Position numbers and translations under genes: made by a program. A DNA stretch of 64,000 nucleotides from the NCBI RefSeq assembly GCF_001653455.1, contig NZ_CP011486.1, forward strand, positions 1,178,001 through 1,242,000. The letters run 5' to 3'. Source of the DNA: Helicobacter pylori (lineage in GTDB: Bacteria; Campylobacterota; Campylobacteria; Campylobacterales; Helicobacteraceae). The notes below the pieces were generated by a model. The model worked only from the letters and a program-made list of their open reading frames with translations. It made no database searches and was not told the origin of the DNA. Shown in pieces: positions 3,571 through 29,458 of the stretch (position 1 is the stretch's first letter; every line of letters starts with the position of its first letter).

Positions 3571-4845
3571 TTAAGAATATTCTTTTAAATCCAACGCCTT
3601 AAAACCAATATCCTTGCGATAAAACATGCCTTCAAAATGCACTTTTTGAGCGATTTCATAGGCATTATTTCTGGCTTCCAGTAAGGATTTCCCTTTACCA
3701 ATGGCAAAGATCACCCTCCCCCCACTGCTTTCAAACACGCCATTATCCTGTTCCACTTCCCCTAAAATCAAATGGCCCTTTTTTTCATCAACCGGATCAA
3801 TATAAAGGGTTTGTTTGGGCGAAGAGCTAGTGGGGTAATTCCTAGAAACAAGCGCGACACTCATCACAAATTCTTTAGAAAACACCAATTCAAGAGAGTT
3901 TAATTCCCCTTTGGCTGTAGCCAAACATAGATCCAAAAGCGAGCTTTCTAAAAGGGGTAAAATCGTCTGGCATTCAATATCTTTAAAACGCACGCCAAAA
4001 TCCAATAAATACGGCTCTAAAACGCCCTTTTCTTCTATAACCACAATTTCAGCCAATAAAACCCCTTTAAAAGGCGTGTTATTAGCTTGAAGTTTCTCTA
4101 AAGTGGGTTTGAAGATGTGATTTTTTATTTTCTCTTCCAATTCATTAGAGAAAAAGTTTGCAGGAGCAATGGCCCCCATACCCCCTGTATTAACCCCATG
4201 ATCCCCCTCTAATAAGCGCTTGTAGTTTTGGCAAAAGGGCAACAAGATAAAATCATCATTAGCTATGAGCGCTGTAACAGAAAGCTCAAAGCCTTCTAAA
4301 AAAGGCTCTATGATCACAGATTCATTGCTGTGTTTGAAAGCGTCTTCAAGGATTTTTAGCGCTTCTTCTTGATGGTGGACAATGCTTGTATTTTTATTCA
4401 ACGCTTTAATCACTAAGGGGAAAGAAGCGTTTTGGAGATAATTCAAAGCTTCTTTGAGATCGTTTGTTTCAAAGTAAGACACGCTTTTAATGCCGCACTC
4501 TTTAACAAAACCTTTCATATAGCTTTTAGAAGTCTCTAATTTAGCCGCTTCTTTAGAAGCCCCAAACACTAAAATGCCCGCTTTTTCTAGCATTTCTGTA
4601 AGCCCTAAAGCTAAAAGCTCTTCTTCTGAAATGATGGCTAGATGGATTTGTTTTTTAAGAGCTAATTCCACGATATGCTCGTAATGTTCGCATTCCAGAT
4701 TCTCGCCTAAATCTTGAGTGCCACCATTACCCAAACAAAAATACAAAGCATTCACTCGTTCGTCTTGCTGAAGCCTTTGAGCCAAAGCATACTCTCGCCC
4801 CTTATTCCCCACAATTAAAACATTATAGCTGTTGTTATCTTTCAT
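3571..4845 (-). CDS. purD: Phosphoribosylamine-glycine ligase
   Basis: A 424-residue GAR synthetase of the ATP-grasp superfamily. It catalyses the second step of purine biosynthesis: phosphoribosylamine + glycine + ATP to glycinamide ribonucleotide. The N-domain glycine-rich turn is GNKGREYALAQRL. The ATP-grasp core includes the family motif NTGGMGAIAPA and a LLDFGVRFKD-like acidic metal-binding segment (the family usually reads E-x-N-x-R-F-G-D-P-E, so this copy is divergent). The reading frame stays open 22 codons further upstream, but the ATG at 4845 has a good AGGAAA ribosome binding site 3-4 nt away and matches the usual protein start. No other purine gene is adjacent. Confidence 0.88.
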   Translation of the reverse strand: MKDNNSYNVLIVGNKGREYALAQRLQQDERVNALYFCLGNGGTQDLGENLECEHYEHIVELALKKQIHLAIISEEELLALGLTEMLEKAGILVFGASKEAAKLETSKSYMKGFVKECGIKSVSYFETNDLKEALNYLQNASFPLVIKALNKNTSIVHHQEEALKILEDAFKHSNESVIIEPFLEGFELSVTALIANDDFILLPFCQNYKRLLEGDHGVNTGGMGAIAPANFFSNELEEKIKNHIFKPTLEKLQANNTPFKGVLLAEIVVIEEKGVLEPYLLDFGVRFKDIECQTILPLLESSLLDLCLATAKGELNSLELVFSKEFVMSVALVSRNYPTSSSPKQTLYIDPVDEKKGHLILGEVEQDNGVFESSGGRVIFAIGKGKSLLEARNNAYEIAQKVHFEGMFYRKDIGFKALDLKEYS

Positions 4846-5214
4846 GTCTTTCCTAAAATGTGGTTGTTTTAAACCCAGATGACCGCTACTTTTACATGTG
4901 CATAAGTTCAATAACCTACACTAATAAGGCTAGGAGGATTCTCTTAGGGGCAGATTTAAAAAATGCCATCACACAAAAACCACTACCTTAGCCTAACTTA
5001 TTTTTTCAACGAACTTGCCATCAATAAGAAACACGAATCATCCAGGCGATGTTTAACAATTATACTTAAATTTTAAAGAAATTCCATGCAAAACGATACA
5101 GCATAAAAAACACAATCAAGAGACAGGCAATGAAAGGAGTTATGAGCGTTAAGGTTTCAATTGCGTTCAAATTTCTAATTTTTTGATCTTGATCTTTTAG
5201 ATAAAATTCAAATT
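4846..5214. other. Gap between purD and the small-gene cluster
   Basis: A gap of about 370 bp. It contains a weak long-range inverted repeat (AATAAGGCTAGG near 4924 and CCTAACTTATT near 4993), a possible stem on the minus-strand transcript entering purD. It also holds a short open frame for a hydrophobic peptide (5066-5170, listed separately). I see no convincing promoter or RNA gene. Confidence 0.4.
5066..5170 (-). pseudogene. Possible small membrane peptide or gene remnant
   Basis: A 34-codon frame starting at TTG encodes a peptide with one clear hydrophobic helix (LITPFIACLLIVFFMLYRFAWNF) ending in KI. Without a start requirement the frame is open back to a TGA at about 5226, just inside the 3' end of the neighbouring gene. 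No ribosome binding site or ATG supports translation. It may be the membrane-anchor end of a broken gene, or chance. It lies directly downstream of a cluster of small unknown genes that looks accessory. Confidence 0.25.
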
Positions 5215-28023: not shown

Positions 28024-28254
28024 ATGTTCCATGAATTTAGAGACGAAATCAGCGTGTTAAAAGCGAATAATCCGCATTTTGATAAGATTTTTGAGAAACA
28101 CAACCAGCTTGATGATGACATTAAAACCGCCGAGCAACAAAACGCTAGCGATGCAGAAATCAGCCACATGAAAAAACAAAAATTGAAACTAAAAGATGAA
28201 ATCCACAGCATGATCATAGAGTATAGAGAAAAGCAAAAATTTGAGCATGCTTAA
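28024..28254 (+). CDS. DUF465 (YdcH-like) small protein
   Basis: A 76-residue highly charged helical protein with the layout of DUF465/YdcH: an FHEFRDEISVLKANNPHFDKIFEKHNQLDDDI half followed by a second helix with KKQKLKLKDEIHSMI. A two-helix hairpin is expected. The function is unknown. The strong ribosome binding site AAAGGAG and a TATACT -10 (near 27990) support expression as a single gene. In H. pylori this gene flanks the bab locus next to rpsR. Confidence 0.8.
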   Translation: MFHEFRDEISVLKANNPHFDKIFEKHNQLDDDIKTAEQQNASDAEISHMKKQKLKLKDEIHSMIIEYREKQKFEHA

Positions 28255-28280
28255 ACATTCATCTTTTTAAAACACGCTCA

Positions 28281-28302
28281 AACGCTTTTGAAGGCGTTTG
28301 GC
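28281..28302 (+). terminator. Terminator after the DUF465 gene
   Basis: CAAACGC and GCGTTTG arms form a 7-bp stem around TTTTGAAG. The downstream T content is modest (GATTTTATT), so strength is uncertain. Confidence 0.45.
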
Positions 28303-28418
28303 TTGCGATTTTATTAGATCTGCTAAACTTAACCCCTTGATTTCAAATTAAAGCGTTAAGTTGCTTTTAACTTCAATGTTTTTCTATTTTTAAAAAATGG
28401 GTTTTAAAATTTTGTTTT

Positions 28419-28518
28419 ATCGTTTTAGATCTGATTTTGTTGTAAAAATCATTTTCTTAAGTTTTATTTAAAATATTTAAAAACGCATTTTCTTAAAGAA
28501 TAGAGAGTATTTTGAAAC
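28419..28518 (+). repeat. 100-bp direct repeat, left copy
   Basis: It runs from ATCGTTTTAGATCTG to TATTTTGAAAC. Aligned without gaps to 28777-28876 it differs at about 10 positions by my count. Its right third is also the beginning of the dispersed repeat (TTTTCTTAAAGAATAG). Confidence 0.8.
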
Positions 28519-28600
28519 CATTCCCCCCTACAAACCCCAACCAAAAACCCCTAAAAAGAGCGCTTTTAAAGAGATTGTTGCTTGATTACACAAACTTTTT
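28483..28600 (+). repeat. Dispersed intergenic repeat, copy 3
   Basis: The blocks CATTTTCTTAAAGAATAG, TATTTTGAAACCATTC, CCCCTACAAACCCCAACC, AAAAACCCCTAAAAAG, AGCGCTTTTAAAG and TTGCTTGATTA appear in the same order as in copies 1, 2 and 4. The palindrome is half degraded here (GCTTGATTACACAAAC). Confidence 0.6.
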
Positions 28601-28776
28601 ATTGTTGGTTATAAAAAACGCCTTTGAGTGTTTTTTGTGATTAGCGTTTGAAAATAAAAACATTGTTTTGCAAAAAAATAAAAAGAATTAGAAAGATAAA
28701 AGCTCTGTTAGTAAAAGAAAAAGTTTAAAAAAATAAAAACTTTGTCAGTGAGAAAAAACTTTATGAGCAAAAAACA

Positions 28777-28876
28777 ATCGTTTTAGATCTTATTTTGTTG
28801 TAAAACTTATTTTCTTAAGTTTTATTTAAAATAGTGAAAAACTTATTTTCTTAAAGAATAGGGTGGATTTTGAAAC
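28777..28876 (+). repeat. 100-bp direct repeat, right copy
   Basis: It runs from ATCGTTTTAGATCTT to GATTTTGAAAC. It ends 11 bp before the ATG of the orphan outer-membrane-protein start (minus strand, 28889). The dispersed-repeat words are truncated here: the C-rich part is replaced by the start codon and leader. Confidence 0.8.
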
Positions 28877-28889
28877 TGGTTTTTTTCAT
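28851..28889 (-). pseudogene. Orphan start of a lost outer-membrane-protein gene (bab locus)
   Basis: An AGGAG ribosome binding site (28900-28896) with 6-nt spacing precedes ATG AAA AAA, after which the frame runs into repeat DNA and stops after 12 codons (peptide MKKTSFKIHPIL). MKK is the typical beginning of H. pylori outer membrane signal peptides, and this is the normal site of a bab gene. I read it as the 5' stub left after loss of the gene body. Confidence 0.6.
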
Positions 28890-28947
28890 AACATTCTCCT
28901 TTTTAAAATGGGTTTGAAATTTGATGCATTGGACATGCATGGGGTGT

Positions 28948-28976
28948 ATTATAGCGTAAAAGCGTTTTTTTTTTTT
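28948..28976 (-). promoter_or_regulatory. Orphan promoter with A12 tract
   Basis: On the minus strand a run of 12 A (28976-28965) lies 11 nt upstream of a consensus TATAAT (28953-28948). The transcript would begin near 28941 and reach the AGGAG and ATG at 28889. Poly-A tracts of varying length in this position are known to tune expression of bab and other outer-membrane genes in H. pylori. Confidence 0.6.
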
Positions 28977-29064
28977 GTAATTTGGAGAAAATTTTAGAAT
29001 TTTTGCACTTTTTTATGTTTTTTGCGCTTTTGTTGGGGTGGCATCGGTGGGGTTGAAAACTACC

Positions 29065-29087
29065 GCTTGACTAAAATCAAGCTTTTT
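29065..29087 (+). terminator. Hairpin related to the dispersed-repeat palindrome
   Basis: GCTTGACTAAAATCAAGC followed by TTTTT. The stem is GCTTGA/TCAAGC plus partial pairing. It is the same palindrome as in repeat copies 2 and 4 but stands alone here. On the plus strand no gene precedes it. Confidence 0.45.
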
Positions 29088-29163
29088 GATCTTGCCTTAA
29101 AAATGATTTTTAACGCTTTTTAATAATTTAATGTTTAACAAAAGCCAAACACGATTAAAACCA

Positions 29164-29181
29164 AAGGGGGCATGCCCCCTT
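29164..29181 (-). terminator. rpsF-ssb-rpsR operon terminator
   Basis: A perfect palindrome AAGGGGGCATGCCCCCTT lies 19 bp after the rpsR stop. The GC-rich stem is followed by a T-containing stretch on the minus strand. Confidence 0.65.
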
Positions 29182-29200
29182 ATTAGTTCTAATCAAACGC

Positions 29201-29458
29201 TTAATGCTGTTTAAAAGGGCTATCCACGACTTTTTTCCTGTCCACAATGTAGGGGATTAAGGCCATGTGGCGGGCTCTTTTAATCGCTACTTCCACCCTT
29301 TCTTGCCACTTTTTGCTATTACCCGTCAATCTCCTGGGCATGATTTTATAGCGCTCTGATAGTGTGTGCTTGAGCATGTCCAAATCTTTATAGTCAATAA
29401 AGCTGATTTTAGCTTCAGTGTATTTGCAATAGCGTTTTGAATAGCGTTTTCTTTCCAT
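29201..29458 (-). CDS. rpsR: 30S ribosomal protein S18
   Basis: An 85-residue basic S18. The motifs [21 protein letters not shown] and [20 protein letters not shown] followed by a basic helix are diagnostic. S18 binds 16S rRNA with S6 on the platform. It is the last gene of the rpsF-ssb-rpsR operon, 23 bp after ssb. In H. pylori this gene marks one flank of a bab adhesin locus. Confidence 0.96.

What the first reader, a model, noticed from the sequence alone, without database searches (positions are those of the whole stretch)
28255..29200. Bab-type adhesin locus beside rpsR emptied down to its promoter and first codons
Between the DUF465 gene and rpsR the minus strand keeps a -10 TATAAT with an A12 tract upstream, an AGGAG ribosome binding site, and ATG AAA AAA. 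The next codon enters repeat DNA and the frame ends after 12 codons. This site carries a bab adhesin gene in many H. pylori strains. The gene body seems cleanly lost while its phase-variable promoter survives. The orphan promoter would still transcribe about 90 nt into repeat DNA, toward the DUF465 gene, and could serve as a landing pad for regaining bab by homologous recombination.
Basis: partly seen in the sequence, partly recalled or inferred. Interest (0 to 1): 0.75.

Follow-up and report, generated by a model that had tools for sequence, protein, structure and literature searches.

The report
Emptied bab adhesin locus beside rpsR
A surface-adhesin gene next to a ribosomal gene in this Helicobacter genome has been deleted down to its switchable promoter and first four codons, the other two copies of the gene are broken too, and two of the three breaks end at the same spot inside a small hairpin repeat scattered through the genome.

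Summary
On the minus strand between rpsR and the DUF465 gene lie an A12 tract, TATAAT, AGGAG and ATG AAA AAA ACC, then repeat DNA and a stop after 12 codons. The best match to this 5' region is the babB gene at the same locus in a related genome, running through ACC and no further. All 13 other pylori-clade genomes with this locus colinear carry a bab body there; the stub's exact junction is in none of 33 other Helicobacter genomes. So it is a bab remnant (bab "locus B", HP1243). Empty bab loci, and strains empty at all three, are known from PCR typing, and this A-tract promoter type is published.

(1) No full-length bab is left: locus C stops after 413 bab codons and locus A is a babA-babB chimera cut by plasmid-like DNA. 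(2) The deletions at B and C have the same distal breakpoint, inside the loop of a dispersed ~85-nt hairpin repeat; the other 33 repeat copies read keep both halves. That suggests, but does not prove, a preferred deletion end point. The "landing pad" idea has no support of its own. Promoter activity is untested; the predicted RNA is about 660 nt, not 90.

The parts
29201..29458 (-). rpsR (ribosomal protein S18), conserved upstream neighbour of bab locus B
   Evidence: 85-aa ORF; 94-97% identical in 14 pylori-clade relatives
29162..29182 (-). terminator-like hairpin after rpsR, so the stub promoter would start a separate transcript
28965..28976 (-). A12 tract upstream of the -10, in the position of the variable A-tract of bab and hopZ promoters
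   Evidence: aligned with longer A-tracts in own babA (locus A), own hopZ and the locus-B babB of L097; PMC4081817 Table 2
28948..28953 (-). -10 TATAAT of the stub promoter (no TTGACA-type -35 found)
28896..28900 (-). AGGAG ribosome binding site
28851..28889 (-). stub reading frame MKKTSFKIHPIL-stop; codons 1-4 (28889-28878) are babB-like, the rest is repeat DNA
28876..28877 (-). deletion junction: ...ATGAAAAAAACCA joined to GTTTCAAAAT...
   Evidence: the same right-hand breakpoint as at bab locus C (L108)
28777..28876 (-). R1: downstream half of the hairpin repeat plus tail, without its upstream half
28596..28776 (-). Y: AT-rich sequence also found in the 3' flanks of hopD, hopZ and truncated babC in this genome
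28519..28595 (-). X: G-rich upstream half of a hairpin-repeat copy that is still joined to its R half
28419..28518 (-). R2: second copy of R, here joined to X, the native 3' flank of bab locus B
   Evidence: colinear in the other genomes, 66-80% identity
28259..28418 (-). locus-B specific 3' flank shared with bab-carrying genomes
28279..28300 (-). first terminator-like hairpin downstream of the stub promoter on this strand
28024..28254 (+). DUF465 gene, convergent conserved neighbour

Best explanation
This is bab locus B (the HP1243 position) of a Helicobacter of the pylori clade whose bab gene was deleted. SHOWN: promoter, ribosome binding site and four codons remain, followed at once by the downstream half of a hairpin repeat and the native 3' flank of the locus. 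SHOWN: the other two bab loci are also broken, so the genome has no full-length bab gene. INFERRED: the deletion arose by a join between the 5' end of the gene and the loop of a hairpin-repeat copy lying 3' of a bab or related OMP gene. The same class of event, or paralogous exchange between bab loci, explains the matching right-hand junction at locus C. INFERRED: the promoter may still fire, but no useful product follows; the remnant is a decayed, non-functional locus.
For: Stub vs locus-B babB of L097: 81% over 113 nt, E 1e-24, score 133 vs shuffle max 45, homology ending after ATGAAAAAAACC. Own hopZ and own babA promoters match more weakly (scores 93, 91). 13 of 13 colinear relatives have a bab body here. 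The native 3' flank is preserved. No full-length Bab in the genome: locus A matches residues 1-524 of the query then a second N-terminus, locus C stops at residue 467 of the query. Locus C junction GAACAAATCC|GGTTTCAAAAT shares its right breakpoint with locus B. Of 35 distinct R halves read, only these two lack the X half (one other flagged by the filter, L205, has X with an interrupted G-run). The consensus repeat folds with the junction in its loop.
Against: The canonical repeat folds only moderately well (-11.8 kcal/mol, z -2.5), and the locus-B copy itself barely folds (-1.1). With two junctions, a shared breakpoint could reflect copying between loci rather than a hot spot. No reads were available to exclude a misassembly. 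No transcript data.
Confidence: 0.88

Rival explanations
1. The stub is a maintained 'landing pad' or a functional orphan promoter (contingency promoter or small RNA), kept to regain bab or to transcribe into the repeat DNA.
For: Promoter parts are intact, including an A12 tract of a length within the range of functional bab/hopZ promoters. H. pylori is known to recombine bab genes between loci (PMC4552749; PMC5394467).
Against: No Rfam match, no sigma-70 consensus site by the tool, no conservation of the junction in any other genome. The flanking genes alone would support recombination. A recent deletion would leave the promoter intact without selection.
Confidence: 0.06
2. The stub derives from hopZ or another Hop gene with the same promoter type rather than from bab.
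For: Own hopZ (score 93) and hopZ-position promoters of relatives (72-77% over about 113-121 nt) match clearly above chance; the locus-B gene of L103 has a hopZ/babB-like start.
Against: The best match by far is the babB at the same locus (score 133), including GGAGAATGT(T/G)ATGAAAAAAACC; hopZ is still present at its own locus.
Confidence: 0.08
3. The empty locus is an assembly artefact caused by collapse between repeats.
For: The locus contains a 100-nt direct repeat, and bab genes and their 3' flanks are repetitive.
Against: Single complete contig of 1,570,310 bases. The junction is not between the two copies of the direct repeat, and no homology of useful length exists at it. The closest relative, G001, also lacks bab here.
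Confidence: 0.04

Closest known systems
Empty bab locus B (HP1243 position, beside S18/rpsR) in H. pylori typing studies
   Same: Same position and same outcome, no bab at locus B; strains empty at all three loci are reported (1 of 160 in PMC4552749; 6 of 406 in PMC5673166).
   Different: Those were inferred from negative PCRs; here the junction is read at base level and the promoter and four codons are still present.
A-tract/T-tract rheostat promoters of H. pylori outer membrane genes (PMC4081817)
   Same: The A-tract lies upstream of the -10 as listed for HP1243 (9A), HP0896 (14A), HP0317 (9A) and hopZ (14A), all between -35 and -10.
   Different: Here the promoter has lost its gene; activity is unknown.
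Loss of OMP genes in H. acinonychis, including orthologues of HP0009, HP0025, HP0317, HP0896 and HP1243 (PMC1523251)
   Same: All bab positions are lost or broken; the closest relative here, G001, resembles that species in its fragmented OMP genes and rearranged order.
   Different: This genome keeps hopZ and hopD and a colinear locus, and still carries large bab fragments.
REP-like dispersed intergenic palindromes
   Same: Short, intergenic, dispersed hairpin-forming repeats, up to 26 listed copies per genome.
   Different: No matching description of this repeat was found in the searched library; no REP transposase was looked for.

Membership tests
bab gene at locus B (HP1243 position) | position between rpsR (S18) and the DUF465 gene | tested here: met
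bab gene at locus B (HP1243 position) | bab/hopZ-type promoter with an A-tract upstream of the -10 and babB-type first codons ATGAAAAAAACC | tested here: met
   start sequences in PMC4552749 Table 2
bab gene at locus B (HP1243 position) | open reading frame of about 700 aa ending ...YSVYLNYVFAY | tested here: not met
   12-codon frame only: an emptied bab locus, not a bab gene
Functional phase-variable promoter | transcription whose output varies with tract length | not testable with these tools
   no RNA data; architecture only
REP-like dispersed palindrome (the hairpin repeat at the junction) | many intergenic copies with an inverted repeat able to fold | tested here: met
   11-26 listed copies per pylori-clade genome, 16-bp stem in the consensus
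REP-like dispersed palindrome (the hairpin repeat at the junction) | association with a REP-associated tyrosine transposase | not tested
   not searched

The most novel reading that the evidence does not exclude
A clade-specific dispersed hairpin repeat in pylori-type helicobacters acts as a recurrent deletion end point (breakage or template switching in its loop). Repeat copies placed 3' of outer membrane genes make adhesin genes such as bab prone to one-step loss that leaves promoter stubs or truncated genes.
Probability: 0.25. Interest if true: 0.55.

Novelty: new member of a known kind. Interest (0 to 1): 0.36.

Why it matters
Empty bab loci have mostly been scored as missing PCR bands. 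A base-level junction shows how one such locus was emptied and that the switchable promoter can outlive its gene. If the shared breakpoint in the hairpin repeat proves general, it would give a testable mechanism for why adhesin genes are lost so often and so cleanly in this group, including in relatives such as H. acinonychis that lack all bab genes.

Tried and rejected
Named strains: the one genome-contig scan returned only H. cetorum of this genus, so the organism was placed by relatives only. A regex census of the repeat timed out and was replaced by BLAST and simpler patterns. Non-coding RNA: no Rfam match. Simple recombination between the two direct-repeat copies as the cause of the deletion: rejected, because the junction lies at the edge of R1, not within a crossover between copies, and R2 with its X half is still native 3' flank. 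Inverted repeat at the locus C junction: none. H. pylori literature on such a palindrome: the papers found list H. pylori only in tables.

Full report
WHAT IS THERE. The minus strand between rpsR (29458-29201) and the DUF465 gene (28024-28254, plus strand) reads A12 (28976-28965), CGCTTTTACGC, TATAAT (28953-28948), a 5' leader, AGGAG (28900-28896), ATG AAA AAA ACC AGT TTC AAA ATC CAC CCT ATT CTT TAA (28889-28851). The DNA after it is repeat: a 100-nt unit R occurs at 28777-28876 and 28419-28518 at 90% identity.

IT IS A bab REMNANT. The 5' region was compared with the same locus in 34 genus genomes, one per species. Thirteen of them keep rpsR and DUF465 colinear and 3-5.5 kb apart, and all thirteen carry a bab body there (L092-L104, ending ...YSVYLNYVFAY); some frames are off-phase or broken. 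The stub matches the babB of L097 (G017) at 81% over 113 nt, E 1e-24. In a local alignment it scores 133 against a maximum of 45 in 200 dinucleotide shuffles, and the match stops after ATGAAAAAAACC. Published babB starts are ATGAAAAAAACCCTTTTACTC... (PMC4552749). Own hopZ and own babA promoters share the same architecture but match less well (93 and 91). Nine of the thirteen locus-B genes have a different, T-tract type of upstream region, so this locus has two promoter types in the clade; the stub is of the A-tract type listed for HP1243, HP0896, HP0317 and hopZ in PMC4081817.

THE 3' SIDE. From 28567 to 28259 the window is colinear with the bab 3' flank of the other genomes (66-80% identity). 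So the native downstream flank is kept, including an X-R2 repeat copy, and the stub is joined to an additional R1-Y stretch of the kind found after hopD, hopZ and the truncated babC of this genome.

ALL THREE bab LOCI ARE BROKEN. A full-length bab protein from L101 was searched against the whole genome. Locus A (about 878-881 kb, beside hypD-type genes) has babA to about residue 530, then a second, babB-type N-terminus; a frameshift follows, and the frame ends at AEQIVSK where plasmid-like DNA with a relaxase gene begins. Locus C (about 328 kb) is a 424-aa frame that runs as bab to AEQI and then enters R. Two near-identical C-terminal bab fragments (96-97% to the query) lie in tandem near 1,566-1,567.5 kb. 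No intact bab was found. Genotypes empty at all three loci are known: 1 of 160 and 6 of 406 strains.

A SHARED BREAKPOINT IN A HAIRPIN REPEAT. R is the downstream half of a dispersed unit, roughly TTCTTGGGTTAGGGGGTTTTAGTTGGGGGTTGTAGGGGGAGAAT(G/T) | (A/G)TTTCAAAATACCCCCTATCCCCTTAAGA(A/G)AATGAG. An 85-nt consensus has 11-26 listed matches in every pylori-clade genome (the number scored was capped at 26), one in G007 and none in the more distant species. The consensus folds as a 16-bp hairpin whose loop contains the bar (-11.8 kcal/mol, z -2.5), although the diverged locus-B copy folds poorly. Of 35 distinct R halves read in the fetched DNA, only two are joined to something other than the G-rich X half: the locus B stub (...AAAAAAACCA|GTTTCAAAAT) and truncated babC at locus C (...GAACAAATCC|GGTTTCAAAAT). 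Their left ends differ (codon 4 versus about codon 413); their right ends agree to within 1-2 nt. The two R copies also share sequence features absent from R2 (TTTTTCACTATTTT), so copying between loci is possible. The hot-spot reading is therefore an inference, put at 0.25.

WHICH ORGANISM. The genome (1,570,310 bases, one contig) groups with G001 in an alaS tree (support 1.0; 93.6% identity against about 92% to most others). G001 lacks bab, has many fragmented OMP genes and has rpsR and DUF465 about 97 kb apart, which fits published H. acinonychis. A plausible name for the window's genome is an hpAfrica2-like H. pylori. That is inference; no name was available.

HOW IT WORKS, IF AT ALL. Most likely it does nothing: a decayed locus whose promoter has not yet eroded. 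If the promoter fires, transcription would run to the first terminator-like hairpin on that strand (28300-28279), an RNA of about 660 nt that stops before the DUF465 reading frame. A landing-pad role is not excluded but nothing singles it out, since the conserved flanks would serve recombination anyway.

LIMITS. One genome per species, so strain-level frequency of the junction is unknown. No reads, no RNA data. The absence of earlier reports of the hairpin repeat rests on a full-text search of open-licence papers only.

Noticed in passing
L108 about 3664-4938 (own genome, bab locus C): Truncated bab gene (424-aa frame) fused after codon AEQI to the same repeat edge as the locus B stub.
   Followed up: yes
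L109 1141-4015 and L201 (own genome 874.8-881.0 kb, bab locus A): babA-babB chimera with two N-termini, ending at AEQI where plasmid-like DNA with a relaxase gene and repeated small genes begins; the relaxase gene ends 4 nt from the Y repeat. Same bab codon as the break at locus C.
   Followed up: partly
L200, own genome 1,566,473-1,567,557: Two tandem C-terminal bab fragments (96-97% identical to a BabA C-terminus) near what looks like an rRNA region and a plasmid-type RepA gene.
   Followed up: partly
Own genome and all pylori-clade relatives (e.g. G000:C1:375048-375131, 773803-773877, 1120054-1120135): Clade-specific dispersed ~85-nt hairpin repeat with G-runs in one arm and C-runs in the other.
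   Followed up: partly
L092-L104, region between rpsR and the bab start: bab at locus B has two unrelated promoter types in the clade: A-tract type (L092, L097, L103, partly L096) and a T-tract type in the other nine.
   Followed up: partly
G001:C1:1141491 and 1238177 (L091, L110): In the closest relative rpsR and the DUF465 gene are about 97 kb apart with inverted relative orientation, so a rearrangement breakpoint falls at this same locus.
   Followed up: partly
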